From Bryobacterales bacterium (GTDB lineage: Bacteria; Acidobacteriota; Terriglobia; Bryobacterales; Bryobacteraceae): a DNA stretch of 64,000 bases. Under the pieces are notes generated by a model that worked only from the letters and a program-made list of their open reading frames with translations, ran no database searches and had not been told where the DNA came from. The translations under genes and the position numbers were made by a program. Positions 16,156 to 33,570 of the stretch are shown here, one piece after another. The stretch is taken from the NCBI GenBank assembly GCA_003167255.1, contig PMTR01000101.1, forward strand, positions 6,697 to 70,696. The letters are read 5' to 3'. The first letter of the stretch is position 1. Every line of letters begins with the position of its first letter.

Positions 16156-18717
16156 TCACCACCCCTCCGGTAGCACTTCGTTCCAATGGTTCGGCAATAC
16201 GTCCAAATGCGTTACGTCTTCCAATTCAGAATGGTAGGTTCGCCATGCTCCTTCCATCATCTGTTGGTCCTGACTTCGACATAGTTCACGGCACCACTTC
16301 CGGAATGAATCGGACACATCGGGGGCTGTCCCAGTGCTGACCGGAGTGTCACCCTCAAAAGCGGCGGCGACCATGAGGTAGTTTTCCCTAGATAGCTCGA
16401 ATATGGCCTCCAACGCCGCTGAGCCGAGCTCACGAACGCACTCGGCCTCTTTGAAGAGTTCCGTGGGGCCACAATTTCTCGGAAACCGCGATGAGCGTGT
16501 GCCCACAAGCATGAGACAATCCCGGAACCTTTGGTGCCGGTCTTCTTCCTGGGGAGATGACAGAGCACATTGAACTACCTCATAAAAGTCCCGGTTGTCT
16601 TCGGCGTTCCGGCTTCCCGATGCAGGGCGAGTCCTTTCGAGTCGGAGCGGGTCCGCTTCCGTAACGCACCAATCGCGCATCCATACTCCACGCTGCGTGA
16701 GGAAATGCCACCAGTGATACTTCAAGTTCGCATCGATCAGCCGTGCGTCCTCCTTGATGACCGCCTTGCCCCTCGCACACCAACGACCGCGCCATGTTTC
16801 CAGAATGTCGGCCAGGCCGGCACCGTTTTGATCGTTGTGCCATGAAATCGTGAACACACGATTCGCAACCGTCCACGCGTCGAGGTCCGTCGCGCTGGCT
16901 GCCTCATAGACGAGCACGTCAGAAAGCTTGGATACCAGTCTATGTTTCGGCAAGACTTTGCTGGGTAATGCCGTGCACGCCCAGATAAGTTCGTCGTCTA
17001 GCACCATTCGCGCCTGACGAGCCGCGTCCCCGTCTAACGTATCAACAAACCGGCCTAGTCTGTCGAGAAAATTCAATTTCTGCAAATGCTCGCTGAATCG
17101 CGGCTCGACACCTCCCTTTTCTGTTTCCGTCTCCATGACAACGGCCCAGTGAAGGAGCGTGGAGTAAGATGCAAGAAGGGCGTCCGCTTCGCTCGGCGGC
17201 AACTCTGCCCATTGCAGAAATGCGGTCCTTAATTCGTCGAGTACCCAACAGATCACTCCCTCGGCCGCCGCGAAACTGAACGCGGGCAATTTGACGACGG
17301 CCCAGCCGACAGCGGAGCAAAATCCCGGATTCCGAACTACTTCCGCACGGAGAGGCAAAGGGAGGTGGCCGGTCAACTCCAACTGGAGAAGGGGATCCGG
17401 GCAGTCGCGTATAAGGTCGATCAGCTCCTGAGGTATGTCCCTCAAATCATGCATTTCGTCATCGAGACCAATCTCACCTGCAACTGCCAGTCCGATGTCG
17501 ATTTGGGACAATGTCAACTCGAGGAGTCCCCGCGCCGCAATTCCAAGCTTGTCGGCGTCAACAACTCGCCGGATAGCGCGGACGGCTGTCTCAACGTTAT
17601 CCGCGCTCCGAAAGTGATGTCGGAGGGCCGCGACGTAAACTTCGTTCGCGACGCGACCAAACTCACCAAGCCCACGTTCGTGCATGACGTACAGGTCTTG
17701 GGACAATGCCCCCGCAACATCTCCGACGCCCAGTGCCCGATAGCCCGTTGGTCCCAGGAAAACAAGACCGGCGGCAAGCTCTAACACGTAGGCGCGAGAG
17801 ATTGCGGACAGCCTTGCTGTATGGTCGCCCCCACCCATCTGTCGTGCCGCCCAGCTCCAGTAATTCACGACGGACGCGAGAGCATCAAACTCGGGCCTAA
17901 ACAAGACCCTGGGCACTCTTGGGTCACTGGCGAAACTCGCCGGCGCAGTCGGTGCTAGGGCTGTCATCTCTGGCAGTCGGTGACCTTGCGCTACAAACTT
18001 CGCATTTCGGCGAAGAATATCATCAAGCTCTGGTCCCTCGAAGCTCCCGCCAATGGACCCGTCCTGGCGTCGGAATAACCCACGAGATAGCCTGAGAGCG
18101 GTACTGGAGCGTATGCGGCGTCCAAGGACGATTTCGGCTGCAGTAAGCAACACCGCGCGGCCCGTTATGATGACCGTGGTTCCTTCTGGCAACCGGTGCC
18201 GAAGGCTCTCTTCGTGACCTCCGTCGACATCGAAGAAAGCGCCCAGACGATTGAGACCCCTCTCATCGCTGGCGAGTTCGCGAAGCGTTACAGTTCCAAA
18301 TAGGTCATCGAGAAGAATCAAGCGTGCAGCGCTAGAATGAACCGTCTGCTCGACCTTTGAAATCGCATCATACACACTCTGCGATGGCCCGACAGCAGGG
18401 AACAGCTTTCGTGAGTCAACCCCACCGTCCCAGGCGAGCAGTGATGGCTGCTCGTCCAGAACCCGCGCAATTGCGGCAATTGCAAACCATGTTTTCCCAA
18501 TTCTTGGGTGGCCATCGATAACTATCAACCGCGTTTGTGAAGGCTGGCAGCCGATTGCCTGAATTGCCATCGGCAGATCTGCGGGGGCTACGAATGTCTC
18601 CTCAAAGTAAGCGACGGGATCAACGGCGACGGGATCACTACCTTGGCCTTCCCGGACTGGAGAAAAGAAGTCTCGGAGAAAGGCCTTGCCCCTTTCCCCT
18701 AACACGAAATTAGTCAT
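16156..18717 (-). CDS. Large STAND-type NTPase, candidate antiviral sensor
   Basis: 853 residues. An N-terminal 60 residues lead into a P-loop NTPase: Walker A GHPRIGKTW (69-77), Walker B LILLDDLFG (133-141) and a sensor stretch VIITGR (182-187). This combination, with Asp-Asp-x-Phe-Gly after Walker B, fits the novel STAND families rather than classical AAA+ or helicases. About 600 residues of mainly helical sequence follow, as in the sensor arrays of STAND proteins that recognise phage products. No obvious effector domain such as a nuclease or protease is fused, so the effector may be a partner protein. It starts in ATGA overlap with the 112-residue gene, which itself overlaps the membrane protein gene. 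STAND proteins are known in defence (Avs); this assignment to defence is inference. Confidence 0.75.
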   Translation of the reverse strand: MTNFVLGERGKAFLRDFFSPVREGQGSDPVAVDPVAYFEETFVAPADLPMAIQAIGCQPSQTRLIVIDGHPRIGKTWFAIAAIARVLDEQPSLLAWDGGVDSRKLFPAVGPSQSVYDAISKVEQTVHSSAARLILLDDLFGTVTLRELASDERGLNRLGAFFDVDGGHEESLRHRLPEGTTVIITGRAVLLTAAEIVLGRRIRSSTALRLSRGLFRRQDGSIGGSFEGPELDDILRRNAKFVAQGHRLPEMTALAPTAPASFASDPRVPRVLFRPEFDALASVVNYWSWAARQMGGGDHTARLSAISRAYVLELAAGLVFLGPTGYRALGVGDVAGALSQDLYVMHERGLGEFGRVANEVYVAALRHHFRSADNVETAVRAIRRVVDADKLGIAARGLLELTLSQIDIGLAVAGEIGLDDEMHDLRDIPQELIDLIRDCPDPLLQLELTGHLPLPLRAEVVRNPGFCSAVGWAVVKLPAFSFAAAEGVICWVLDELRTAFLQWAELPPSEADALLASYSTLLHWAVVMETETEKGGVEPRFSEHLQKLNFLDRLGRFVDTLDGDAARQARMVLDDELIWACTALPSKVLPKHRLVSKLSDVLVYEAASATDLDAWTVANRVFTISWHNDQNGAGLADILETWRGRWCARGKAVIKEDARLIDANLKYHWWHFLTQRGVWMRDWCVTEADPLRLERTRPASGSRNAEDNRDFYEVVQCALSSPQEEDRHQRFRDCLMLVGTRSSRFPRNCGPTELFKEAECVRELGSAALEAIFELSRENYLMVAAAFEGDTPVSTGTAPDVSDSFRKWCRELCRSQDQQMMEGAWRTYHSELEDVTHLDVLPNHWNEVLPEGW

Positions 18718-19052
18718 ATATATAGCACGTAGCAGATCGTCCTCAGGTCGTGATTCTGCAGTAGATTCGCTTCCGGAGTCTTCCCGCTATACCTTTCTTG
18801 CTCGGCGGTTAGTTGCCTTAGGATCTGCCTGACGCACTGGCTAGCAAATTTGTGAGCCTCCTTGCGAGACCCTGGGGGGCGCCAGATCCAGACAAACCAA
18901 AAAAACGGCTCCGGCCCTGGGCCAGGAAACGGCATCGCCGGCAGGTGCTGCTGGATTTGCGCGAATGCATTCATACGAACGACTTCAGAATCCGCATTCC
19001 ACCCGGTATCACCGACAAGAGAGCGATCAACAAAACACACGCGATGACTCAT
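18714..19052 (-). CDS. Small protein of unknown function between membrane protein and STAND NTPase
   Basis: 112 residues from the ATG at 19052; a GTG at 19058 is possible but the ATG gives a four-base ATGA overlap with the gene before it. The stop likewise overlaps the STAND start by ATGA, so three genes are translationally coupled. The sequence has a proline- and aromatic-rich centre (PFPGPGPEPFFWFVWIW) that is unlikely to span a membrane, then a basic helical segment (KFASQCVRQILRQL). I recognise no family. Coupling to both neighbours suggests that it bridges or regulates the NTPase and the membrane protein. Confidence 0.7.
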   Translation of the reverse strand: MSHRVCFVDRSLVGDTGWNADSEVVRMNAFAQIQQHLPAMPFPGPGPEPFFWFVWIWRPPGSRKEAHKFASQCVRQILRQLTAEQERYSGKTPEANLLQNHDLRTICYVLYI

Positions 19053-19699
19053 GGACACACCTTATCGTTCCAATATCCCCACCAGATGAAGCTCAAAAAC
19101 TCAATTGCAATCGCCAGAAAAAACAAGAAGGTTGCCCCCGTGAACCAATGGGCCGCGACCCGCACTCCGTCTAAGACCTTACACTCGGCGAGTGTGCTTT
19201 TTGTCAAGAGGCTAAGCGGGTCTTCGAATTCAGTCGGTGGGTGTAATGACATTCGAACGAGCATTAGGATGTCAGACTCATCCTTGACGCTATCGTCTCC
19301 GTCCAGCTTCGGATGCAGCCTCCAAAGGCCGCCTGCAAGCACAGCGATCCCGATGGCCCAACAGGTCGTGGAGACTATGGCCGCAACCCCGCCCAAGACC
19401 TTAAAATAGTCACGGAACTGAACGGCGAGTGTCGCGGCTGGCAAGAGAAAGGCCGCAGCAACGCTACCGTAGAGCTGTGACCGAAAGGAACGCACCTCCT
19501 CGCGCGTGCTGTCGAACAACGAAACGAGGGAGTCGATGGTCCACTGTGTTCCCGGCTCATGATGCCCGGCATCCGCCGGCTTGGCCTGCACCACGGCCGT
19601 CCCACTTCCACCAGGCGCGGCCGCGCGTGTGGACGGGACTTGATGGCTGGGAGCCGGATCTTCCACAGAGCCTCCTGTGTACTTTAGAGTACGCTGCAT
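19049..19699 (-). CDS. Membrane protein with three to four TM helices, first gene of STAND operon
   Basis: 216 residues from the ATG at 19699; a TTG start at 19738 could add 13 residues. The N-terminal 75 residues are soluble and polar, followed by two closely spaced hydrophobic stretches (LYGSVAAAFLLPAATLAV, then IVSTTCWAIGIAVLAGGLW), a soluble acidic loop of about 55 residues, and a last membrane segment (ATFLFFLAIAIEFLSFIWW). The layout resembles membrane-disrupting effectors of defence systems, such as 2TM-type effectors, but no specific family was matched. Being first in an operon with two ATGA junctions, it is the natural effector or anchor candidate for the STAND protein. Confidence 0.7.
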   Translation of the reverse strand: MQRTLKYTGGSVEDPAPSHQVPSTRAAAPGGSGTAVVQAKPADAGHHEPGTQWTIDSLVSLFDSTREEVRSFRSQLYGSVAAAFLLPAATLAVQFRDYFKVLGGVAAIVSTTCWAIGIAVLAGGLWRLHPKLDGDDSVKDESDILMLVRMSLHPPTEFEDPLSLLTKSTLAECKVLDGVRVAAHWFTGATFLFFLAIAIEFLSFIWWGYWNDKVCP

Positions 19700-19704
19700 T
19701 GTAT

Positions 19705-19723
19705 CACCCGTCCACACCCGTCC
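19705..19723. repeat. Direct repeat in front of the STAND operon
   Basis: On the + strand the 9-mer CACCCGTCC occurs twice with a one-base spacer (19705-19713 and 19715-19723); on the coding strand this reads GGACGGGTG twice. It ends six bases before the ATG at 19699, so it could be an operator, or part of the coding sequence if the TTG at 19738 is used. Confidence 0.6.
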
Positions 19724-19827
19724 GTGAAAGGGCAGCAAACCGCCTGATCACGGCGTGAGCTTGTTCTGTTCGCTACGAATTGCATCGAATTTCCTACCAA
19801 CCGGTTTTTCTTGCGCTGTCGTCTCGA

Positions 19828-22444: not shown

Positions 22445-23845
22445 ATGATGGCGTCGACGCATATCGTTCTCACCGTCGGCTTGAGCGAAGTTCCAATTCT
22501 GGTTGCTGCGTATCGCCTATGTTTGCTCTACCTCAAACGGGACGGGGTGCTTCCTTCGTTTTCGGCACTGTGCATTCAAGACACGACCGACGAGGCGGGA
22601 CGCGTTCAGCGTCAATTGATCGCGAAGCTGACAGAGGAGGCATTGTTGCCATCGGGCTGTGTACTCCGATGGACCGCCTTCGTGGTTCCACATTCAAATC
22701 CCCCGGCTATACGCCGAGCCGTAACTAATCTGCTCCGCCTTCAGAGGCCTGGCTCTCACATCCATTTGCACTACACAGGTGGGTCCCGGGCGTTGTCCGT
22801 ACACGCCATGGAAGCGATCGTCTCCGGGGTTGATGCCGCCGGCGAGCGCTACAGCTACGAAGTCAGCTACCTCAGCTCTGGCGAGGATGTTCTGACGTGG
22901 GGGTGCGGAACGGACTTTCAGTTGGGGGATGAGCGGCCAAACTGGTCGCTCGGGATTGCCGAGTTGGCCTCACTCAACGGTTTCACGCCAACCTTTTATT
23001 CGAGCTACTCCCATCAGCACTTCGGCGTTTCCGACCCGGATGAGGATGTGGTGGTGGCGGGAGCGGCGATGGTCCCACTGCTGATCCCTTCTGAGAACCG
23101 CAGGGCCTACGGCAGGTGGCTCGCCGCTACTTGGGATGCATGTTGGAAAACTGGTTCGGATGACAGAGGCTGGCTCCGCTGGCCGCAGCCACCGCCCCGT
23201 GATAACTGGCCGCAGAAAGATCTGCCTTGGATCATGCTCTCTCCGGACGTCGAGTGGAGGGAAATCACCTCGAACCTGGCGCATTGCTTCGGTGGCGATC
23301 CAGTGTGGCGGGTATCCGAAACGGGCATGGCCCTCCGAATTGCGAATCTCAACGAGCAGACCCTACCTAAGCTTCACCAGTTCCTTCACTACCAGTGTCT
23401 GGAGTTGCTCGCCTTCGGCGCTTTGAAAGGGTCGCTCATAGACCTCGGGTATCCCGATTGGGTAGTCCACCAATCTGTGCATTTCGCTCGGCAGGGGGCG
23501 CGCGGCATCCAGCGCCGGGACTTTGAACTAGACGTGGTTGCCGTTCTCGGATACCAGATGCTTGCCGTGTCGTGCTCGCTATCGTCCGACCAACCGTCTC
23601 TGAAGCGCAAGGCTTTCGAAGTTCTTCACCGAGCCAAGCAGATAGGAGGGGATGGCGCGCGGACGCTGCTCATCTGTTCGCTCTCTCCCAGGGACGCGGA
23701 GGGACTCATGCAAGATGTTGAGGAGGACACTGGCCCACGTGAAAGGAACCTCGAGATTTGGGGGGTCGATTCACTGAACTGCCTCGCTGAGCGCTTCCGG
23801 TATTATTTACAAAACAGTCTGGCTGTGCACCCTCGTCTCCCGTAG
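22445..23845 (+). CDS. CARF-domain protein with PD-(D/E)xK nuclease-like C-terminus (Card1/Can2-like)
   Basis: 466 residues. The N-terminal Rossmann-like part begins with LTVGLSEVP, and HLHYTGGSRALSVHAMEAI lies around residues 107-125; the TGGSR (111-115) is at the position of the TGGTK signature of CARF domains that bind cyclic oligoadenylate. The C-terminal part carries Glu320, FELDVVAV (360-367) and AVSCS (374-378), followed by KRKAFEVLHRAKQIGG, the layout of the restriction-like nuclease domain of Card1/Can2 proteins. The usual ECK lysine is replaced by serine at residue 378, so the site may be degenerate or use a nearby lysine. No Cas gene or CRISPR array is in the window. The ribosome site is weak; the second ATG at 22448 is equally possible. 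Confidence 0.75.
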   Translation: MMASTHIVLTVGLSEVPILVAAYRLCLLYLKRDGVLPSFSALCIQDTTDEAGRVQRQLIAKLTEEALLPSGCVLRWTAFVVPHSNPPAIRRAVTNLLRLQRPGSHIHLHYTGGSRALSVHAMEAIVSGVDAAGERYSYEVSYLSSGEDVLTWGCGTDFQLGDERPNWSLGIAELASLNGFTPTFYSSYSHQHFGVSDPDEDVVVAGAAMVPLLIPSENRRAYGRWLAATWDACWKTGSDDRGWLRWPQPPPRDNWPQKDLPWIMLSPDVEWREITSNLAHCFGGDPVWRVSETGMALRIANLNEQTLPKLHQFLHYQCLELLAFGALKGSLIDLGYPDWVVHQSVHFARQGARGIQRRDFELDVVAVLGYQMLAVSCSLSSDQPSLKRKAFEVLHRAKQIGGDGARTLLICSLSPRDAEGLMQDVEEDTGPRERNLEIWGVDSLNCLAERFRYYLQNSLAVHPRLP

Positions 23846-23993: not shown

Positions 23994-24548
23994 TCAGCCC
24001 GGAGTTTGTCCGTGAGGTTTGGCGTCTCGGGGCCGTCGCAGGGCTACGCGCTTGGGAATCGCTTGCTGTTGCAGCCAATACCTAAGCATGGCGCAGTGCC
24101 GGATGACGTCGTCGAGTTCAGCGATAGTCGCCTGCGCCTCCTTCTCTTCCACAATTCCGTCTTCAAGCGTGGCGCAGAGGCTGCCGATGGCCTCAGCAAC
24201 TTCTTTCATGAGGCGATTAACATTGACGGCGCCAGTGCGGTCCGTTGGCTCCGGTTCGGGAATGGGAAACGCCAGCCGCCCCGCCTGTCGTTCGAGGTGG
24301 TCCAGGGCTTCGTAGTTGTTGAGCAACCGACATAGCGGCACAATAAACTCGCTGGGGAAGCGCCGGTCAGCGTTGCCGCCGATCCAGTACATCAGGGAGC
24401 GATAGCCGACTCCCAGATCTCTAGCCAGGAGCCTAAGGTCGGTTTTGCGCTCCGGATCCTCAACAACTCGTCGAATGACGTCTTGTAGGTTGTCCACGAA
24501 TTCTCCCGATATAAGCTCACCGCCCCACGAACGAGCATCGACAATCAT
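23994..24548 (-). CDS. Phage CII-like regulatory protein
   Basis: 184 residues. The segment DLRLLARDLGVGYRSLMYWIGG (about residues 37-58) is a lambda-repressor-type helix-turn-helix, followed by FPSEFIVPLCRLLNNYEALDHLERQAGR, the layout of the phage CII-like (CP76) regulator family. The C-terminal half is an amphipathic helical tail likely to mediate oligomerisation. It is convergent with the CARF gene across a 148-base gap rich in hairpins. Its presence suggests that this part of the island has a prophage origin. Confidence 0.65.
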   Translation of the reverse strand: MIVDARSWGGELISGEFVDNLQDVIRRVVEDPERKTDLRLLARDLGVGYRSLMYWIGGNADRRFPSEFIVPLCRLLNNYEALDHLERQAGRLAFPIPEPEPTDRTGAVNVNRLMKEVAEAIGSLCATLEDGIVEEKEAQATIAELDDVIRHCAMLRYWLQQQAIPKRVALRRPRDAKPHGQTPG

Positions 24549-24635: not shown

Positions 24636-25130
24636 TCAACGCTTACAGGAAGACCTGTAACCAGAGACCATGGACGCGAGTTGACTGATCTCGCCATATG
24701 CCCCAGCCAACTCCGAACTCAACTCCATGATGACTTCCATGAGAGTCGATTCGCGAGCACCGATCCTCCGCCTGCTCGTCAAGGACCCCGGGGGCAATCC
24801 CTCTAGGATGCCGGTGAGCGCTCTGAGTTCCGCTTCGATCTCGGTGATGAGCGTTTCCTTCGGCGTCCCGCCACCGCTGTGGTCGGACGAAAAGGCTGGA
24901 GATTGCCCCAGCGTGCTTGAGCTACAAGCAGCGATTGTCACAAATACCGACTCAGATAGGCGCCGGAGAATGTCGCGAATACTCGGCAGGGAAACCGTGG
25001 GGGAGCGCCAATCAACTTCCTCCTGGCTCAGGGGCTCAACGCAAGCCTTGATCTTGGGCCAGTAGCGATTCAAGAGCGAATCGCTCGATACCCTTATGAA
25101 ATCCCTTCCAACTGGCGAAGCCGGGTCCAT
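24636..25130 (-). CDS. DinB / DUF1572-like protein, partly diverged
   Basis: 164 residues from the ATG at 25130; a longer frame to 25241 adds a cysteine- and arginine-rich stretch that does not look like coding sequence. The helical pattern, LLNRYWPKIKACVEPLSQEEVDWRSP followed by SIRDILRRLSESVF, matches the four-helix DinB-like family (LSEEELWWRP in the DUF1572 consensus as remembered). The usual metal-ligand histidines of DinB are not seen at the expected places, so it may be inactive or divergent. It is isolated, 88 bases from the CII-like gene. Confidence 0.55.
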   Translation of the reverse strand: MDPASPVGRDFIRVSSDSLLNRYWPKIKACVEPLSQEEVDWRSPTVSLPSIRDILRRLSESVFVTIAACSSSTLGQSPAFSSDHSGGGTPKETLITEIEAELRALTGILEGLPPGSLTSRRRIGARESTLMEVIMELSSELAGAYGEISQLASMVSGYRSSCKR

Positions 25131-25307
25131 GCACAAGAATCTAGCACATGCGCGAATGGAGGTGTTCACGCGTGGTGATCTGGTTGAACGGAGAGATCGC
25201 ACGACGCAGATGAATCGACATTGCTGTGCGATTGGCGTCAAATGCTTACTGGGAGGATTAAGGGCCGGAAGTTGAATCCGGGCAACAGACGGACGAGCAC
25301 ATGAGGC

Positions 25308-25336
25308 TTGTCTGGGATAACGCCTTGGAATACAAT
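25308..25336 (+). promoter_or_regulatory. Sigma70-like promoter of the tubulin-like operon
   Basis: TTGTCT at 25308-25313 and TACAAT at 25331-25336 are separated by 17 bases. Transcription would begin near 25343, giving a leader of about 18 bases to the ATG at 25361. This supports that ATG over the ATG at 25301, which would lie upstream of the promoter. Confidence 0.6.
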
Positions 25337-25360
25337 CAGTTTCCGGCCCGAAAGACGATT

Positions 25361-25807
25361 ATGCATGCCAAGGATCGAGCGGTCGCGATCGTCGGAGTCT
25401 TCGTAGCGTTCGCGGCCCTGGTGGGTTGCGACCGGATCGGCGGCAGAACAATTACCGTCGAATTTCGAAATGCCGAAGGTGTTCGCGGTGGCGAGGCTGT
25501 TTACATCGCCGGCGTAAAGGTCGGCCGTGTAACCGACGAGCCTTCCTTGGTGAACGGTCGGGCGCGCGTCTCGGTGCTGATCAGCCGGAAGAACAAGCAC
25601 GGCGTGCCGGCAGGGACCGTATTCCTGCTCAAAGCTGATCCGAGTGAACCAAGCAAGCAGTGCCTGGTTGCGTACTCGTTAGGTTCTGGCCCCGCGCCCC
25701 CGGAAGGCTCCGAAGCGTCCTATGTTGGCGTCAGTAGCCGCGCCGAATTGCTCTTCATGATGAGTGCAGAGAAGGCAACCAAGTTCTGGGAGGGACTGAC
25801 GAAATGA
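25361..25807 (+). CDS. MCE/MlaD-domain lipoprotein, first gene of the tubulin-like operon
   Basis: 148 residues. From the ATG at 25361 the N-terminus is basic, hydrophobic and ends in LVGC, a lipobox-like site, so the mature protein is probably lipid-anchored. The rest carries the single MCE/MlaD pattern: ITVEFRNAEGVRGGEAVYIAGVKVGRV, then an extended strand region and GVPAGTVFLLKADP. MCE proteins bind lipid and form rings that shuttle phospholipids between membranes; this one lacks the long C-terminal helix of the transporters. The gene overlaps the vWA gene by ATGA. Confidence 0.72.
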   Translation: MHAKDRAVAIVGVFVAFAALVGCDRIGGRTITVEFRNAEGVRGGEAVYIAGVKVGRVTDEPSLVNGRARVSVLISRKNKHGVPAGTVFLLKADPSEPSKQCLVAYSLGSGPAPPEGSEASYVGVSSRAELLFMMSAEKATKFWEGLTK

Positions 25808-27117
25808 CCGGCTTCCAGGGAATACAGCAGCGGGCTCTCCTCATCGCTTTGCTTATCATTTGGGTGTGCATAGGCCTGGTGCCGGCCGCCGCGCAAAGTT
25901 CTCCGGCAGAGCCGCCGAAAACGCCCATCGACCTCATCCTCATCGTCGACACGTCGGCGACTATGGTCGGGAAGGCCGGGGGCCAGAACATCTTCCCTGA
26001 TGTGAAAAGGGCGCTTAAAGAGCTCGTGGAGGCGTGCGGACCGGGCGACAACGTTATCCTCATCCCGTACGACGCCGACGTGCGAGCCCGGGCCGCGGCA
26101 GTAATCTACGACAAGCAAGACAAAGCTGCGATGCGCGCAGAGATCGACGCCTTGACCGCGCCCGGACTTTGGACGTACACTGCGGCGGCGATTCAGAAGG
26201 GTCTCGAAGAAGCCAGACGACTTGATGAAGCGCAGGGCGCTGGCAAACACCCGAAAGTCGTCGTCCTGTTGACGGACGGTCTAAATGAGCCACCTCCAGC
26301 GGTTCGAGGGTCGGCCGCCGAGGTTCATCTGGACGACGTCGCCCGCCGGTTTCAAGGCATGCCGTGGTTCGTGTGGCAGGTTCAACTCGGCCCGAAGATT
26401 GACGTCGGGGTAGACGAAGCCTTCCGGGCGGCAGGGTTTCCGAATTACCGACCAGTACGGACGGCGGCCGCGGACCTGAATAAGGTTCGGGCCGACATCT
26501 TGAGTGAAGCCGAGGCCGAAAAGGCGCGCCAAGCTGCGGAGCGAGCGGCCGCGGAGAAGCGGAAGATGGCCGCGCAGCCCGACGAGAACGCACAGAGGAC
26601 AGCGGCAGAAGCGCAGATGCGCCGGCAGGAGGAGGGGAAAAGACGTGCCCAGGCTGCCGCGAAGGAAATGGAGGCTCTCCGACTGCAAGAGGAAGCTTCT
26701 CGCCGCGCGGCACGAGAAAGACAGATTATCGGGGCGGCGGTGCTCGCCGGTTTGGCTGTCGTTGCCGTCGTCATCGTCCTATTACGTCGACGGCCCCAAC
26801 CACACGGAACTCTACAATACTGGAGACCCGGCGAGCCTCCTCGCACATTCGATATCACGTCCGCAGGGAAGAGGCGGCTCCGTGTGGGCCCAACTGCTGG
26901 TGACTTGGTGCTGGCAGGGCTAGGGGACCGGGGGCTAACGCTTAGAGCCGCTCGGGTTGAGGGCCAGGTCCTCTGTGTGATTGAGGCTGACGACGGGGTC
27001 GGCCTTACGTTTCGGGGGAAGCCGGTGAACCGGCTTGAGCTTTATGATCGGGACCAGTTTCAACTGGGCGATCACAGTCTGCAATACGAGGGAGAAGTAG
27101 GTTCGCGAACCGAATGA
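25804..27117 (+). CDS. Secreted/membrane vWA protein with coiled coil, TM and FHA-like C-terminus
   Basis: 437 residues. A signal-like segment (8-30) precedes a von Willebrand A domain with MIDAS residues Asp49, Ser51 and Thr53 (DTSAT), and LLTDG with Asp158. A long alanine/arginine/glutamate-rich coiled coil spans about residues 233-308, then a membrane segment (309-327) with an RRR stop. The last 100 residues are beta-rich (RRLRVGPTAGDLVLAG, LYDRDQFQLGDHSLQYEG), compatible with a cytoplasmic FHA or FHA-like domain; the Arg/Ser phosphothreonine site is not clear. The topology would place the vWA domain outside and the FHA-like domain inside. ATGA overlap with the MCE gene; 37 bases before the tubulin gene. 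Confidence 0.78.
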   Translation: MTGFQGIQQRALLIALLIIWVCIGLVPAAAQSSPAEPPKTPIDLILIVDTSATMVGKAGGQNIFPDVKRALKELVEACGPGDNVILIPYDADVRARAAAVIYDKQDKAAMRAEIDALTAPGLWTYTAAAIQKGLEEARRLDEAQGAGKHPKVVVLLTDGLNEPPPAVRGSAAEVHLDDVARRFQGMPWFVWQVQLGPKIDVGVDEAFRAAGFPNYRPVRTAAADLNKVRADILSEAEAEKARQAAERAAAEKRKMAAQPDENAQRTAAEAQMRRQEEGKRRAQAAAKEMEALRLQEEASRRAARERQIIGAAVLAGLAVVAVVIVLLRRRPQPHGTLQYWRPGEPPRTFDITSAGKRRLRVGPTAGDLVLAGLGDRGLTLRAARVEGQVLCVIEADDGVGLTFRGKPVNRLELYDRDQFQLGDHSLQYEGEVGSRTE

Positions 27118-27154
27118 AGATGGCCGCAACCCGGCCAGAAGAGAGAGACGCGCC

Positions 27155-30100
27155 ATGACGGAAACCACGCAAGGATCTGAAGCAGCGAACATCGACTTGA
27201 CTGAAGGGCTGGAACAGCCGGACGATATCGGGCTCACCGTAGACGTGGACCCTACGAAGTCGGCGACCAAGGCCGGCGATGTCACCGGAGTCCAGTTCCG
27301 GCCCGCAGTGTTGGTCGGCCTTGGCGGCACCGGAGTCGGGTGCGTCCGCCGTGCCAAGCAGAAGATCCTGAACCGAGTCGGGAAACTTCCCACCGTGGCC
27401 TACGTCTGCGTTGACGCGGACGAAGCTTCATTCCTTAATGCTCCGGGCATGGCGACTGTCGAACAGAACGAACGGTGTTTCATCGGCGGTGATCAACTCC
27501 AACCTCTGCTTGACCAGCCAGAAGCCCATCGCTGGCTGCTCGACCAAATTCCCGGCAAACTAGCGGCTGGGCACTACGAAAAGGCTGTGAAAGGGGATGG
27601 TTGCGGCCAGGTGCGCACGGTTGGACGCGTAGCCCTCCTGGCTTCGATGTTGAATGTCAAGACGGCGTTCACTACCGCTTTGAACCGCGTCGAACGCCTG
27701 GTCTCCGGTTTGAGTACAAAACTGAAGGCCGCCGGTCAGACGGCGACCGTGGTAGCCGACCCAGTCGTCTATATCGTCTGTTCGCTCGCCGGCGGAACCG
27801 GCAGCGGAGCCTATCTGGACGCCGCCCTCCTAGCTCGAACTCTGACCAAGCACCGCGCCAAGATGGTGGGGATTTTCGTGCTGCCGGACGCATTCGACGA
27901 AAAGGTCCAGGGCGACGAGTCGCAGCTGAGGATTATGCGCGCTAATGCGTACGCGGCGTTGATGGAACTGCAGGCGCTTCAGGATATGCGTGATGACCTC
28001 GGTCTCGAAGCAGTGATCAGTGCCGATGGGGAAACGCTGTCGCTCCCAGCGGGCCGCCAGCTTTTCGACCTCTGCTACCTGATTGATTACAAGAACGAAA
28101 GCCACAAGACCTTCTCCCAAACCGAGGATGTCTATGAACTGGTGGCGCGCTTGCTGCTTCACGAGAATGCCACTCAGTTCAGCGTCAATGCCCACAGTGT
28201 CGAACGTAACCTGAACACCCTGAGGGGTGTCGCTCGTTGCCCAGAAACAGGGTTGCCCAGAAACTTCAGCACGTTTGCCAATACTCGACTGGGTTTTCCC
28301 ATCGAGGCGGTTACGCGCTTTTGCGCGTGGTCAACTCTCCGTGAGTTGGTTGAGAACGACCTCCTTAAGACCACTTTGTCCCCTGCGAAGCGAGCCGAAG
28401 AGGCGCAGACTTTCCTGACAACGCACGAACTGGACGAGCAGGGACCTACCGATCAGGTGCTGAATCGCTTGCTGCAGCATCCTCAAAAACGGACGCCGAT
28501 GAGTGAGGGTACTGAGGGTGTCGGCCGGACCTTCGGAAAGGACAAATCGCCGCGTGAATTCGTGACGCTGATCGGGCAAAAGCTTGACACATTCAAGAAG
28601 AGTCTGCCGGTTGCGGAGTCGATCGTCACGGACAACTTGGCCTTCTATCTCGGCAAGCCGACCGGCACGGAGTACCCGGTTAGGAATTGGCTCGACAGTT
28701 ACTTGAACGATTGCATCGCGAAGCTGGGAACGCGCGGCGCGGCTGCGGTACTGGAAGAACTGGTCGTACGGACGACTGCTCTCAGAGGCGAGATGATCAG
28801 CGAGAATCGGCTCTGGGCGGATACGGAAAGCAAGGCCCGAACCGGCGCCATGGATAGAGCCCTGAGCGCCTTGTCTGGGATGAGCCGAGTCAAGGCTATG
28901 GTTAGCAGTAAGGACGACACGCTAAAGGGAGAGGCGATCGGAGCCTTCCAGGCCATCGTTCGCGACGAACTGCGGACCGTCGCACGCAACGCAGCAATAA
29001 AAGTGTTCGACGGGCTGATTTCTCTCGCGAGCTCTCGGAAGCAAACCGTGGATACCTTCGTTTCTACGTGTGAGACGTTGAGCAGAACTGTCAACAGCAG
29101 CTTGAATACGCTCCGAGTGGAACGGCGGCGGGAGACGGCGAACTTCGTTGTCGAAATGGACGTCACCGACCGGGGCTTCTTGGAGGAGTACTATCAAGCG
29201 AACCGCGTCGCCCCTTCGCGGCTACTGAAGGCGGCCAAAGACGCTGCTGGCAGCGACGCGCCTTACTATATGCGGCTGCTGCCCATGAAAACGGAGGGCC
29301 TAGTCAAGGAGTTCGGCCAAAGGGCTGCTGATCTTTACTTCCCGAAGATCAAGAGCCTCAGCGTCGTAGAGCACATTTCCTCCAGAGCCGACGAGCGCGG
29401 CTCCTTGGCGGTGAAACTGGGCGAACTGTTTGACATGTGCCAGCCGTTCTGGAACACCAGGCTGCCGCAGGTCAATATGCAATACGACCAGTTCATTGCA
29501 CTAGGCTGTGTGCCGCAAGCATCTGATACGGGTGGTGCTGGCGGTTTTCCCCAGGAGGTGCGTCAGTGGGCACAGCGTTACACGAAAGCCATCCGAGGCG
29601 GTGTGGCCGCGCCGGCAAACCTCGTCGCGACGACGGCTCCATACGAGATCGAATTGGTCCGCTACACGCATGGCGCCCGTGCGTGGTATCTGAGCGACGC
29701 AGCGGACTGGAAAGAGAAGTTCGAGCAGACAGTGAAACAGAAGGCCTTCCCGTTGCTCTTGAGCAAGGGGTTGTCCGATATCCCCGATCTTTTCCCCGAC
29801 AAGAAGAAGATCTCGCGGCAGTCCTTTGCTCTCGCCATGGCGTTCGGCTTCGTCGCGAAGCGTGGGGACTACTATTATATGAACCTGGATGGCGGCCAAG
29901 CCGAGGTCGATGGCGCCTATCAGGTGCCTATGGATACGGAATGGCAGACAGTTTTTGGTCCACCCACCGATCGGAAGATCTCTGACGATACGGGCCCCAT
30001 CACCTTCCTGTTCAAGAAGAGAAAGCCGAAGGAGTCACTCTTGCTCGCCCAAGGTCGTACCCAAGCGTGTTCGAAGCTCGGTCAGGATCCGAAGAAGGTC

Positions 30101-30274
30101 GAAGCCATCCTTACCGCCCTGTCCGAATACGTCAAGGCCGTCGGCTCGGCTGCGGTCAAGGCGCAACTCTCCGCGTATGAGGCATTCCTCGATGATTTCG
30201 AGGCCGACAAGCTGCGCGATCAGATCGAACTGGAACGCGATTCCATCAAGGACTACCGGAAGAACCTCGAGTAA
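27155..30274 (+). CDS. Tubulin/FtsZ-like GTPase family protein (Tubulin_2-type)
   Basis: 1039 residues. The N-terminal GTPase part has VLVGLGGTGVG (53-62) and CSLAGGTGSGAY (209-220); the latter corresponds to the tubulin/FtsZ nucleotide loop GGGTG-[ST]-G. This arrangement, at this length, marks the large tubulin-like family (Tubulin_2) that is distinct from FtsZ. After about residue 400 the chain is helical, with repeated charged helices that may mediate filament contacts. No membrane segment or signal was seen, so the protein is cytoplasmic. It has an AGAGAGA ribosome site. Polymerisation is likely by family but cannot be shown from sequence alone. Confidence 0.82.
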   Translation: MTETTQGSEAANIDLTEGLEQPDDIGLTVDVDPTKSATKAGDVTGVQFRPAVLVGLGGTGVGCVRRAKQKILNRVGKLPTVAYVCVDADEASFLNAPGMATVEQNERCFIGGDQLQPLLDQPEAHRWLLDQIPGKLAAGHYEKAVKGDGCGQVRTVGRVALLASMLNVKTAFTTALNRVERLVSGLSTKLKAAGQTATVVADPVVYIVCSLAGGTGSGAYLDAALLARTLTKHRAKMVGIFVLPDAFDEKVQGDESQLRIMRANAYAALMELQALQDMRDDLGLEAVISADGETLSLPAGRQLFDLCYLIDYKNESHKTFSQTEDVYELVARLLLHENATQFSVNAHSVERNLNTLRGVARCPETGLPRNFSTFANTRLGFPIEAVTRFCAWSTLRELVENDLLKTTLSPAKRAEEAQTFLTTHELDEQGPTDQVLNRLLQHPQKRTPMSEGTEGVGRTFGKDKSPREFVTLIGQKLDTFKKSLPVAESIVTDNLAFYLGKPTGTEYPVRNWLDSYLNDCIAKLGTRGAAAVLEELVVRTTALRGEMISENRLWADTESKARTGAMDRALSALSGMSRVKAMVSSKDDTLKGEAIGAFQAIVRDELRTVARNAAIKVFDGLISLASSRKQTVDTFVSTCETLSRTVNSSLNTLRVERRRETANFVVEMDVTDRGFLEEYYQANRVAPSRLLKAAKDAAGSDAPYYMRLLPMKTEGLVKEFGQRAADLYFPKIKSLSVVEHISSRADERGSLAVKLGELFDMCQPFWNTRLPQVNMQYDQFIALGCVPQASDTGGAGGFPQEVRQWAQRYTKAIRGGVAAPANLVATTAPYEIELVRYTHGARAWYLSDAADWKEKFEQTVKQKAFPLLLSKGLSDIPDLFPDKKKISRQSFALAMAFGFVAKRGDYYYMNLDGGQAEVDGAYQVPMDTEWQTVFGPPTDRKISDDTGPITFLFKKRKPKESLLLAQGRTQACSKLGQDPKKVEAILTALSEYVKAVGSAAVKAQLSAYEAFLDDFEADKLRDQIELERDSIKDYRKNLE

Positions 30275-30298
30275 CGGGTCGCCGGAGGGGAACTTCAA

Positions 30299-32389
30299 AT
30301 GATCGGTGCTGATGACTTATCATCACCTCCCTCAGCACGTGTGGCCAATCTCACGCTTGCGGTGGGGATCGGTGCGCTGGGCGAACAGGTGATCGCTGAA
30401 CTCAGAAAGCTCTTGGTGACCTCGGAAGATGGCCACCGATGGGCGGTAGCCTCCTGGTGTAGCGCGGACCAAGGGACCCACGCAGCTGAGGCGGCGGCCC
30501 TGCTACTCTCAAACAGAAACCTGGACACCCTCGAACAGGCAGGCTATCAGGTGCCGGGCAGGGACGTCGGCCAACCTCCACGTCTGAGCGTGGCATACAT
30601 CGTGGACCTGAATGACCAAGGGTCGAGCCAATCCGTGGATACGGTCCGCAAGGATTTGGAGTCGGTGTGTGTGCCCACTACGCAATCGATCATAGCCGCC
30701 GGCGCGGGTCAGATCGCCGAGATCCTTGCCAGTGACACCGTTGCTAGGTACAAGTGGGATTTTGTGGTGCCGATTTCCTCGCAGGACCGGGTCGCTGGTG
30801 CGAGGGCACAGATCGACATTGTTGCGACGGTCGCGAGGATTGTCTTTGTTTTCTCAGTTGCCGATCAACCTCACTTCGGCTCGAGGGTGTTGGGGCGGAC
30901 CGCTACGCCAGCAGTGCCGGGCACACCTGTTGTGAGAATCGGCGGTGCCTTCTTGGATAGTGGGCGCGGCGAATTGCTAATGTCCCTTTCGGGGTTCGTG
31001 GCCTGCGGACTGCTGGGGCGGCAATTTGAGAACCTAGCAAGTTTTCAGCCGGCTGGCGCTTTCGACGATCAGCGGCGAACCAAACTTCTGGACCTCGTCG
31101 GTGCCGAGGTGTTAGGGCGTCGGCTGTTGGGCGATACTCCATTCGAGCTCCGTATCGACGATGGCGGAGTCTGGCATGTCGAACTACCCCGTGGGATTGT
31201 GGCCGCAGAACTCCATCGCGTACCGCGACGTCGTTGGATAGCCGTCCTCCAGAAGCTCCGTGACCTGTTCGATTTCACCAAAGCCCGACGATGGGCGGAG
31301 TCTGTCGAGCGCTCAGAGGCCGCAATGCTGTCCTCTATTCAAGAAGCGATCACGGAGGACATACGGCAGTTGCACCACTACGAACGTGGGCCTGACAGGC
31401 TGCTCTCCTGGGCGTCTGCGGCCCGAGATCTGCTCGAAGTGCAACCTGAGATCGTGCGGCCCGCGAATGCTGACATCGACGCCGCCATTGGGAGACTCCG
31501 CGCGGAGGTTCTAAGGTCTCCCAATTCGATAGCAGTCTGGGTCCGCGTGGTGCTTCTGGGCTGTATTGGCGCAGAGGGAATCAGGCATATCTTCCGAGCC
31601 CTGTTCGGGGACATGATCGGGTGGCTAGGATTCACATCCACGCTGATAGTCGCGGCAATCTTAGGCTTCCGTTTACTCGAGCGCGCGCACCAGGATCTCC
31701 ATTCGGCTCTCAAAACTGCCCAGGAAGCGCTCATCCGTCGATATGAGGCTCAAATGAGGGAGAATCTGAGTCTCGTGCTGACCCGGGTGCGAAGTCGGCT
31801 CATGGCCCTCCTCGACAATGAGATCAGCAAGGTCCAGAACCAGGTGCAGTGCGCCTCAGACATCACCGGATCGATGATCGGAGAGTTTGGGGGCACGACC
31901 GCTACCGACTTGGTCAACGTGGAGTGGATCGTTCCAGCGGAATCCAGACAGAGGTTGCTGGAGTCCCTCAACCTGCCATGGTCGACATTGCAGCGCCAGG
32001 CGGCAGCTAACGGAGTGTTCGTGCCTGATCCTCCTGAGGGCACAGAATGCATAAGGCAAACGGTCGCCGCGGCAGTTGACTTCTCTATGCAGTACCTTCA
32101 GTCGCGATTAGACGATTTCGGGCTCCAGGGATTGATGGAGTTCCGATGCAACGAAGACCTCGGATTCGAGGACAGAATCGTCCGGGACCTTGATCGCAGA
32201 TCGACCGCGCTCGCTGGCCGGGCTCCACTCCGGACATCCTGGCACGGCCCAGCCGATGTTCTCACTCAACTTCACGACAAGATCGTTACGCTCGATCCGG
32301 ATGCGGTAGAGCAGCCATCTGTTTCCGGAATGGTGGCTTGCCTCAAAGTGGGCGGAAGCGTCACCGTTCTGCCAGGAGACCCCAAATGA
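30299..32389 (+). CDS. Membrane-anchored tubulin-like partner protein
   Basis: 696 residues with a GGAGGGG ribosome site. The N-terminus (VANLTLAVGIGALGEQVI) aligns in position with the VGLGGTG region of the neighbouring tubulin-like GTPase, but GGTG is changed to GALG and the GGTGSG loop is not evident, so nucleotide binding is doubtful. Two hydrophobic stretches lie around residues 409-460 (AVWVRVVLLGCIGAEGI and ITS-like STLIVAAILGF), followed by a helical, coiled-coil-like region to about 530. It could be a membrane anchor or a non-hydrolysing subunit for the preceding filament protein. The stop overlaps the next start by ATGA. The homology to the tubulin-like protein is inferred from the N-terminal motif and operon position. 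Confidence 0.68.
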   Translation: MIGADDLSSPPSARVANLTLAVGIGALGEQVIAELRKLLVTSEDGHRWAVASWCSADQGTHAAEAAALLLSNRNLDTLEQAGYQVPGRDVGQPPRLSVAYIVDLNDQGSSQSVDTVRKDLESVCVPTTQSIIAAGAGQIAEILASDTVARYKWDFVVPISSQDRVAGARAQIDIVATVARIVFVFSVADQPHFGSRVLGRTATPAVPGTPVVRIGGAFLDSGRGELLMSLSGFVACGLLGRQFENLASFQPAGAFDDQRRTKLLDLVGAEVLGRRLLGDTPFELRIDDGGVWHVELPRGIVAAELHRVPRRRWIAVLQKLRDLFDFTKARRWAESVERSEAAMLSSIQEAITEDIRQLHHYERGPDRLLSWASAARDLLEVQPEIVRPANADIDAAIGRLRAEVLRSPNSIAVWVRVVLLGCIGAEGIRHIFRALFGDMIGWLGFTSTLIVAAILGFRLLERAHQDLHSALKTAQEALIRRYEAQMRENLSLVLTRVRSRLMALLDNEISKVQNQVQCASDITGSMIGEFGGTTATDLVNVEWIVPAESRQRLLESLNLPWSTLQRQAAANGVFVPDPPEGTECIRQTVAAAVDFSMQYLQSRLDDFGLQGLMEFRCNEDLGFEDRIVRDLDRRSTALAGRAPLRTSWHGPADVLTQLHDKIVTLDPDAVEQPSVSGMVACLKVGGSVTVLPGDPK

Positions 32390-33570
32390 GATTCGCCCGT
32401 GTCTCGGCAGCGTTTATACTCCTCTGTGCAATCCTTAGTCCGGCGAAGCACTTGGTTCGCTATCTTGGTGGAGCGCCCGGAACAGAAGCCGGCGTTTTCG
32501 AATCTCTACTCCGCGGGTTGCTTTACTTGGCGCTGTTGCTCATTCTCTATTCAGTGCTGACCGTTGTTTTTTGGTTAGTCCGCCGTCTACTGGTATTTGC
32601 TGACGAATGGGAGAGTGTCGGTTTCGCAGATCTTGATGTTGGGGTGCACGGGCTGTGGCCTTACCAGTGGTTCCTGGTGGCTGGAATCATACTGCTGATA
32701 GGTGCGGCATTTGACAGTCACGGGCAATGGACAAGTTCAATCGTGGAGGCACTTGGGGCGGCCGTCGCGATTCTGGCGGGACTCCTGGGTCCGCCGCCGG
32801 GCCCAAATCCTATTGATGACTACGACCCGCTTCCGCTCCCGATGCCTGCTCCACCAAAACCAGTCCCAGAGCCGTCACCAGGGCCCGAGCCACCCTCGCC
32901 ATCAGATGTCATTCCGTTGACCATGTCGTGGTTCTTCCGAAAGGAACCTGGAACTCTTGATGCGCCAGCGATGAGCTACGAAGTGTCCATCGACGCCTCG
33001 AAATCCAGGTACGAAACGCTTCTGGCCAAGGAGCACGGCGTCAGAGCTGTCGGTGACTATGGACGATTTGTTCGAGATGGCCTTACACCAGAAGTCTGCG
33101 AAACGGCTTCCCAGATAAGGAGGATATCCGAGAAGGATCGACTTGGCACAATCTTGGAAATCAATAATGTACTCGCGTTCGCCCAGCGATTCAGCTATGC
33201 CCTCGACAGTGAGGACAAGGGCGTGCCCGAATACCCAAAATATCCCCTGGAGACAATGGTCGAAGACCGCGGCGACTGCGAAGATCACGCAATCGTTGCA
33301 GCAGCGTGTCTGGTGCGGCTAGGCTACGATGTGCGTCTGGTTTCACTGGAGTACGGCTCGGGACCTGGTCACATGGCGCTCGCCGTCGCCGGCGCAGAGG
33401 AACTACCGGATGCATTCGCACTTCGCGACCCAGTGTCCGGTCGGAAATTCTACTATTGCGAAGCGACTACCGATGCCGGCTCGCGCAATCCGAATGCTGC
33501 GGCATTCCGGATGGGTGAGGTTCCTGATCGCGATCGCAGTGCCAAAATGGAGCTCGTTTCGGTCGTCTGA
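32386..33570 (+). CDS. Membrane protein with transglutaminase-like domain
   Basis: 394 residues from the ATG at 32386 (overlapping the previous stop). An N-terminal signal or membrane segment is followed by two or three further hydrophobic segments (LLYLALLLILYSVLTVVFWLV; WFLVAGIILLIGAAF; ALGAAVAILAGLLG), then a proline-rich linker (residues 140-170, PLPLPMPAPP and similar). The C-terminal 200 residues are transglutaminase-like: Cys298 in GDCEDH, His329 in GPGHMALAV and Glu359 in YYCEAT. Such domains act as proteases or cross-linking enzymes in the periplasm. It is the last gene of the operon and presumably the enzyme of the system. Confidence 0.8.
   Translation: MRFARVSAAFILLCAILSPAKHLVRYLGGAPGTEAGVFESLLRGLLYLALLLILYSVLTVVFWLVRRLLVFADEWESVGFADLDVGVHGLWPYQWFLVAGIILLIGAAFDSHGQWTSSIVEALGAAVAILAGLLGPPPGPNPIDDYDPLPLPMPAPPKPVPEPSPGPEPPSPSDVIPLTMSWFFRKEPGTLDAPAMSYEVSIDASKSRYETLLAKEHGVRAVGDYGRFVRDGLTPEVCETASQIRRISEKDRLGTILEINNVLAFAQRFSYALDSEDKGVPEYPKYPLETMVEDRGDCEDHAIVAAACLVRLGYDVRLVSLEYGSGPGHMALAVAGAEELPDAFALRDPVSGRKFYYCEATTDAGSRNPNAAAFRMGEVPDRDRSAKMELVSVV

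What the first reader, a model, noticed from the sequence alone, without database searches (positions are those of the whole stretch)
22445..23845. CARF-nuclease-like protein without any CRISPR system in the window
The TGGSR motif and the C-terminal ELDV-SCS-GG layout match Card1/Can2-type effectors, normally activated by cyclic oligoadenylate from type III CRISPR. No cas gene or array lies within 20 kb on either side. It may use a signal from another sensor, for example in the adjacent STAND or tubulin-like systems, or act in trans with a distant locus.
Basis: partly seen in the sequence, partly recalled or inferred. Interest (0 to 1): 0.72.

Follow-up and report, generated by a model that had tools for sequence, protein, structure and literature searches.

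The report
Stray CRISPR-type nuclease with altered sensor
A bacterial gene for a signal-activated DNA/RNA-cutting enzyme, which in its known relatives sits right beside the CRISPR gene that makes its alarm signal, here stands alone far from any CRISPR gene, with its cutting part intact but its signal-sensing pocket changed, so it probably either answers a CRISPR system elsewhere in the genome or has taken up a new signal.

Summary
Window 22445-23845 encodes a full-length CARF plus PD-(D/E)xK nuclease of the Can2/Card1 (DUF1887) kind: PADLOC Csx1/CARF4-PDDEXK E 3e-37; AlphaFold model closest to Can2 of Thermoanaerobacter brockii, Z 29.5. Its whole 76.9-kb contig shows no RAMP, Cas10 or Cas1 match and no array. 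But the genome carries two type III loci on other contigs: an effector-less III-A locus with an intact GGDD Cas10 (C28), and a III-D-like locus with a GGDE Cas10, CorA, a DHH protein and RT-Cas1 (C38). In all 70 relatives that could be judged, the CARF gene lies directly upstream of a cas10 gene (-61 to +69 bp). The window gene is the lone exception. It is also the outlier in the ligand pocket: 6 of 7 otherwise conserved positions are changed (at most 2 in any of 70 complete relatives), while all 11 nuclease positions examined are intact. Best reading: a displaced Can2-type effector, probably activated in trans by the III-A Cas10, with a retuned pocket. Rivals: a 'cast adrift' sensor like VC1899, or a different ligand such as SAM-AMP. 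Nothing supports a link with the neighbouring STAND or tubulin genes. Activity and ligand are untested.

The parts
22445..23845 (+). CARF - PD-(D/E)xK nuclease gene (Can2/Card1, DUF1887 kind), 466 aa; the relatives' start corresponds to residue 2 or 3
22445..22912 (+). CARF domain, about residues 1-156 (Rossmann order: strand 5-11, helix 15-33, strand 38-44, helix 48-64, strands 76-81, 105-109, 137-144)
   Evidence: AlphaFold model; CARF-only matches end at about residue 156
22478..22495 (+). first ligand-loop motif GLSEVP (residues 12-17); relatives read GxNPLP (N14 in 70 of 70 rows with a letter there)
22574..22579 (+). residues I44-Q45 at the end of strand 2, where relatives have T or S (70 of 70) and SthCan2 has cA4-contacting Thr42; exact register uncertain
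   Evidence: Thr42 from PMC7969007 passages
22772..22789 (+). second ligand motif YTGGSR (residues 110-115); relatives read YTGGTK (K in 67 of 71, N in 4, R in none); equals Lys99 of SthCan2 and Arg96 of VC1899
22865..22876 (+). SYLS (residues 141-144): Tyr142 kept (71 of 71), D144 of relatives (68 of 71) changed to S
23375..23815 (+). PD-(D/E)xK nuclease domain, residues 311-457
23525..23533 (+). catalytic E361-L-D363 (E341 of T. brockii Can2, named in PDB titles as the E341A mutant; Glu276/Asp278 of SthCan2)
23570..23653 (+). S376-C377, K387, K389, E392, Q399, GGD 401-403: family-conserved nuclease residues, all intact

Best explanation
The gene encodes a Can2/Card1-type effector. Its N-terminal CARF domain binds a nucleotide second messenger as a dimer, and binding opens the C-terminal PD-(D/E)xK nuclease cleft, so that DNA and RNA are cut non-specifically in a phage-infected cell. 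The gene comes from a lineage in which it is the first gene of a carf-cas10 pair in type III-D-like loci. Here it has been separated from cas10 and stands alone. The most likely source of its signal is a Cas10 encoded elsewhere in the same genome, above all the III-A complex on contig C28. That complex has an intact GGDD cyclase motif, no detectable HD domain and no linked effector, so the window gene would be its missing effector in trans. The pocket has been rebuilt (N14S, P15E, T/S44I, T114S, K115R, D144S against the family), so affinity or ligand preference has probably shifted within the cyclic oligoadenylates. SHOWN here by sequence or model: the fold, the intact nuclease residues, the missing linkage, the type III loci, the pocket changes. 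INFERRED from characterised relatives: dimerisation, activation by cOA, nuclease activity. NOT SHOWN: the partner and the ligand.
For: Family and fold. Operon ancestry: a cas10 gene directly downstream on the same strand in 70 of 70 distinct relatives that could be judged, and also in L091-L093. The window protein is sister (SH-aLRT 97) to Poribacteria/Latescibacterota proteins that are themselves cas10-linked. Genome: two Cas10 palm domains, C28 and C38. C28 is III-A (TIGR02578 above its cut-off; Csm2/3/4/5) with YCGGDDF, no HD match in Pfam and no effector gene recognised by eye among the listed ORFs within about 11 kb downstream and 15 kb upstream. The same effector-less III-A locus recurs in two same-family genomes. 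Genomes with RAMPs: 49 of 50 relatives' genomes searched and all 6 CARF-positive genomes of the phylum sample, against 61 of 347 overall. Precedent: PMC11229360 section 23 reports 133 cyclase-positive, nuclease-deficient type III loci without effectors and an excess of multi-locus genomes among such cases, suggesting effectors in trans. Nuclease: 11 of 11 examined positions intact.
Against: Six of seven pocket-motif positions differ from the family, the worst of any complete row. No CRISPR array was found near C28, C38 or C146, so a supply of crRNA is not shown; arrays may sit in unassembled parts. The two same-family genomes keep the III-A locus but lack this gene, so III-A does not depend on it there. 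Other effectors were not searched exhaustively: Csx1_HEPN absent, the Csm6_HEPN search uninformative, NucC, Cam1 and others not searched.
Confidence: 0.45

Rival explanations
1. Cast-adrift sensor, like VC1899 of Vibrio cholerae: the gene lost its Cas10 partner, the pocket decayed and cOA no longer regulates it; the nuclease is inert, weakly constitutive, or kept for an unrelated role.
For: VC1899 is described as an orphan CARF protein of the same fold with intact nuclease residues, replaced pocket residues (including the equivalent Lys-to-Arg change) and weak RNase activity not controlled by cA4 (PMC7969007 passages). The model matches 1xmx at Z 26.2. 13 of 24 conserved CARF columns kept against 19 of 21 in the nuclease.
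Against: Simple decay should not spare the nuclease so cleanly (11 of 11). Unlike VC1899 (Val115) the window keeps Tyr142, and Lys-to-Arg keeps the charge. Unlike the reported V. cholerae case, type III Cas10 genes are present in this genome. Card1 and SthCan2 respond to cA4, and Card1 does so without the GxNPLP loop (alignment), so that loop alone is no proof of a dead pocket.
Confidence: 0.27
2. Signal switch: the pocket was re-made for a different nucleotide signal, either SAM-AMP made by the CorA-linked GGDE Cas10 on C38, or a non-CRISPR signal such as RNA ends.
For: C38 carries CorA directly 5' of its Cas10, in the slot that the CARF gene takes in relatives, and a DHH protein matching PADLOC DHH_CorA; CorA with NrN is the SAM-AMP module (PMC10600005 and PMC11229360 passages). 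Coordinated change of six pocket positions with a preserved output domain. Two C38 RAMPs are homologous to those of the carf-cas10 loci.
Against: No CARF domain that reads SAM-AMP turned up in the passages read. The C38 Cas10 is a very long branch outside the carf-linked Cas10s, so C38 is not simply the old partner with its effector replaced. The SAM-AMP product of C38 is itself an inference. A CARF-containing regulator of RNA repair (RtcR) is known to me only from a search listing.
Confidence: 0.2
3. The nuclease belongs to an adjacent system in the window (STAND NTPase, or the MlaD/vWA/tubulin-like/transglutaminase cluster).
For: Proximity only.
Against: The gene stands alone between genes on the other strand; only chance-level defence hits among the nine neighbours tested; the constant partner in relatives is cas10.
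Confidence: 0.03

Closest known systems
Can2 of Thermoanaerobacter brockii (PDB 8q3y-8q44)
   Same: Whole-length fold (Z 29.5, 374 residues aligned, 20% identity), ELD...K..K...QIGGD nuclease motifs
   Different: 8q3y has GTNPLP and TGGTK in the CARF pocket; the window has GLSEVP and TGGSR and extra segments (about residues 60-80 and 240-310 against its sister clade)
SthCan2 (7bdv) / Card1 (6wxw, 6xl1), cA4-activated type III effectors
   Same: CARF plus PD-(D/E)xK architecture, catalytic Glu/Asp, Tyr118 equivalent (Z 24.2 and 22.3-24.8)
   Different: Lys99 is Arg115 and Thr42 is Ile44 or Gln45 in the window; gene not linked to type III genes
VC1899 (1xmx), orphan DUF1887 protein of Vibrio cholerae
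   Same: Orphan, same fold (Z 26.2), nuclease residues kept, Lys-to-Arg in the same pocket position
   Different: The window keeps the Tyr (VC1899 Val115), lies in a genome with two Cas10 genes, and is nearest to a cas10-linked clade
CARF-PD-(D/E)xK of Poribacteria/Latescibacterota (L021-L025)
   Same: Sister clade, 30-34% identity
   Different: All five are 19-22 bp upstream of a GGDD cas10 and have the family pocket (P15A in two of five)

Membership tests
Can2/Card1 (DUF1887) effectors | N-terminal CARF fold fused to C-terminal PD-(D/E)xK nuclease | tested here: met
Can2/Card1 (DUF1887) effectors | Catalytic Glu/Asp and Lys of the nuclease present | tested here: met
   E361, D363, K387, K389 and 7 further positions, 11 of 11
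Can2/Card1 (DUF1887) effectors | Four cA4 contacts shared by Can1 and Can2 (Ser19, Thr42, Lys99, Tyr118 of SthCan2) | tested here: inconclusive
   Tyr kept, Lys to Arg, Thr to Ile/Gln; Ser19 could not be aligned
Can2/Card1 (DUF1887) effectors | Gene linked to a type III CRISPR locus | tested here: not met
   None on the 76.9-kb contig, against 70 of 70 relatives beside cas10; type III present elsewhere in the genome. So it is a homologue of Can2, not shown to be a type III effector
Can2/Card1 (DUF1887) effectors | Nuclease switched on by cA4 | not testable with these tools
   Needs protein and cOA
Pfam Card1_endonuc PF09002 | Match to the Pfam model | tested here: not met
   No match in the genome; the control rang in 1 of 14 genomes, below the cut-off
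VC1899-like orphan CARF proteins | No type III system to work with, and a pocket unable to take cA4 | tested here: not met
   Two Cas10 genes in the genome; pocket changed, Tyr142 and a basic residue kept; binding itself not tested
CBASS effector | CD-NTase partner | tested here: not met
   No SMODS match in the genome; other CD-NTase models not searched

The most novel reading that the evidence does not exclude
A CARF nuclease that left its cas10 operon and had its sensor rebuilt to read a signal other than the usual cyclic oligoadenylate, for instance SAM-AMP from the CorA-linked Cas10 in the same genome or a non-CRISPR alarm signal, while keeping its DNA/RNA-cutting output.
Probability: 0.18. 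Interest if true: 0.75.

Novelty: new variant of a known kind. Interest (0 to 1): 0.45.

Why it matters
Many type III loci make a signal but have no effector beside them, and it has been proposed, on statistical grounds, that they use effectors encoded elsewhere (PMC11229360 section 23). Here is a concrete, testable pair: an effector-less III-A Cas10 and a lone Can2-type nuclease in one genome. The same protein is a natural experiment on CARF specificity: six pocket positions changed at once on an intact nuclease, in a family whose other members keep them. Either answer, in-trans cOA effector or re-tuned sensor, would be informative.

Tried and rejected
Partner in the adjacent STAND/tubulin cluster: no profile or association support. 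CBASS partner: no SMODS. Phage or plasmid origin: no tblastn match in 50,697 phage records, no relative in viral contigs with the window protein, four weak matches in 72,556 plasmids, all cyanobacterial; no PHROG match. Effector swap in an orthologous C38 locus: tempting because CorA takes the CARF slot, but the C38 Cas10 sits on a very long branch, so not claimed. Cas6 neighbourhood (L117) and contig C38 20-40 kb (L118): no array. Own genome and two same-family genomes for other effectors: Csx1_HEPN none; Csm6_HEPN uninformative, as nothing rang in the controls. dN/dS was not possible: the gene is in one genome of its class in the sample. A careful Cas10 tree did not finish; the quick one was used. 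My early reading of residue 45 as the Thr42 equivalent was replaced by '44 or 45' because two alignments disagree.

Full report
1. What is there. ORF 22445-23845 (+) is intact. PADLOC's Csx1 model PDLC01512 matches residues 4-449 at 3e-37, with several CARF4--CARF_PDDEXK models. Pfam, NCBIfam and PHROGs give nothing. A phmmer search of the PDB finds only Can2 (8q3y group, 1.2e-17, nuclease half); a profile with five relatives reaches Can2 8q3y (1.8e-65), SthCan2 7bdv, Card1 6wxw and VC1899 1xmx. AlphaFold2 on 30 sequences gives pLDDT 79.3, pTM 0.79, with a low-confidence middle (about residues 187-261). Foldseek's best match is T. brockii Can2 (1.1e-26); VIA Z 29.5 for 8q3y and 26.2 for VC1899.

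2. The surroundings. The gene has no co-directional partner that looks real: a CII-like regulator (23994-24548) and 24636-25241 lie on the other strand downstream, a Cys/Met-metabolism-type enzyme on the other strand upstream (that name is my reading of the sequence). The whole contig (76,932 bases) was scanned with six Cas profiles built here and for regular repeats: nothing. Rfam and tRNA scans of the window are empty.

3. The genome is not CRISPR-free. RAMPs lie on C28 and C38, Cas10 palm domains on the same two contigs only, Cas6 on C146. C28: III-A, Cas10 485 aa with YCGGDDF, TIGR02578 above its cut-off, Csm2-Csm5, no HD domain in Pfam, a short Argonaute pair next to it, no effector recognised. 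C38: Cas10 with LLWGGDEL, TIGR03986 and double RAMPs, RT-Cas1, CorA directly 5' of cas10, and a DHH protein matching DHH_CorA. CorA with NrN is the SAM-AMP module in the literature (PMC10600005, passages; PMC11229360, passages); GGDE is listed in the latter among motifs of likely active cyclases. No array was seen around any of them. SMODS: none.

4. The relatives. One genome-contig scan found 73 loci (pattern from the nuclease motif, confirmation E 1e-3 to the window, so more distant or motif-less orphans would be missed). With the genome-search loci and after removing duplicates there are 72 relatives. A cas10 gene lies directly downstream on the same strand in 70 of 72; the other two end at a contig edge. 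Gaps are -61 to +69 bp. By a simple expression 65 of the 70 Cas10 carry GGDD. L091-L093 also have cas10 beside the match. RAMPs occur in 49 of 50 of the relatives' genomes searched (50 of 71 handles) and in 61 of 347 genomes of the phylum sample, among them all 6 with a CARF homologue. A more sensitive profile finds the family in 7 of 396 genomes of the phylum; the two same-family genomes have none.

5. The pocket. SthCan2 contacts cA4 with Ser19, Thr42, Lys99 and Tyr118; [quoted passage not shown] In the family alignment I took seven positions (N14, P15, T/S44, T114, K115, Y142, D144). They were picked after seeing the alignment, so the count is descriptive. The window differs at six; of 70 complete relatives 57 differ at none, 12 at one and 1 at two. 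Chosen by a rule instead (85% or more conserved in 69 relatives), the window keeps 13 of 24 CARF columns and 19 of 21 nuclease columns; the next lowest complete CARF row keeps 18, and one row cut at its N-terminus 12. Against over-reading: in the alignment Card1, a cA4 effector, reads SEQTIP in the first loop, four cyanobacterial relatives have N at 115 while still beside cas10, and Arg keeps the charge. So the pocket is different, not proven dead.

6. Descent. The quick tree places the window as sister to L021-L025 with SH-aLRT 97, on a long end branch (1.17). Those five are 19-22 bp from a GGDD cas10. The C38 Cas10 is far outside the carf-linked Cas10s, so C38 is not shown to be the former partner. 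The III-A locus without a linked effector recurs in both same-family genomes (L098, L099), which lack the CARF gene.

7. Mechanism. Best: Can2-like dimer, cOA in trans from the C28 Cas10, cleft opening, DNA/RNA cleavage. PMC11229360 section 23 describes just this class of effector-less, cyclase-positive, nuclease-deficient loci and proposes effectors in trans. Steps shown: fold, residues, lack of linkage, presence of Cas10. Steps inferred: dimer, ligand, activity, partner. Rivals: cast adrift (0.27), signal switch (0.20), neighbour system (0.03).

8. Known or new. The fold and architecture are known; orphan DUF1887 proteins have a precedent (VC1899). New here: a member displaced from an otherwise constant carf-cas10 pair, with a changed pocket and intact nuclease, in a genome that holds a candidate signal source. 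I searched the held open-access library six times and read passages of three papers; I make no claim that such cases are absent from print.

Noticed in passing
window 25301-33570 (+): Cluster of MlaD-domain protein, vWA protein, Tubulin_2 (PF13809, 2.9e-50), an unnamed 696-aa protein and a transglutaminase-like membrane protein.
   Followed up: no
window 16156-19738 (-): nSTAND3-like NTPase (PF20720, 0.0014, below cut-off) near a 229-aa membrane-type protein with a very weak PycTM hit (E 0.033).
   Followed up: no
window 16-8524 (+): Phage-tail-like proteins (PHROG tail and baseplate matches for 2179-6390 and 6383-8524).
   Followed up: no
window 23994-24548 (-): CII-like regulator (PF06892, phrog_101) facing the CARF gene.
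   Followed up: no
L012 6619-9407 (contig C28): Short prokaryotic Argonaute with a REase-APAZ partner immediately beside the III-A locus; none was seen by eye at the III-A loci of the two same-family genomes.
   Followed up: partly
L014 9010-13953 (contig C38): CorA directly 5' of a GGDE Cas10, in the gene slot that CARF nucleases occupy beside cas10 in the relatives.
   Followed up: partly
L100 12112-14495 (G291, contig C113): A Cas10 32% identical to that of C38, also GGDE, has a different, 310-aa apparently membrane-spanning protein in the same 5' slot: perhaps a membrane-effector clade.
   Followed up: no
L069, L070, L073, L075: Four cyanobacterial relatives have TGGTN instead of TGGTK while still beside cas10.
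   Followed up: no
relatives: The catalytic Glu (E361) is Gln in 10, Asp in 5 and Asn in 1 of 71 relatives, though all keep the Asp (D363) and K387.
   Followed up: no
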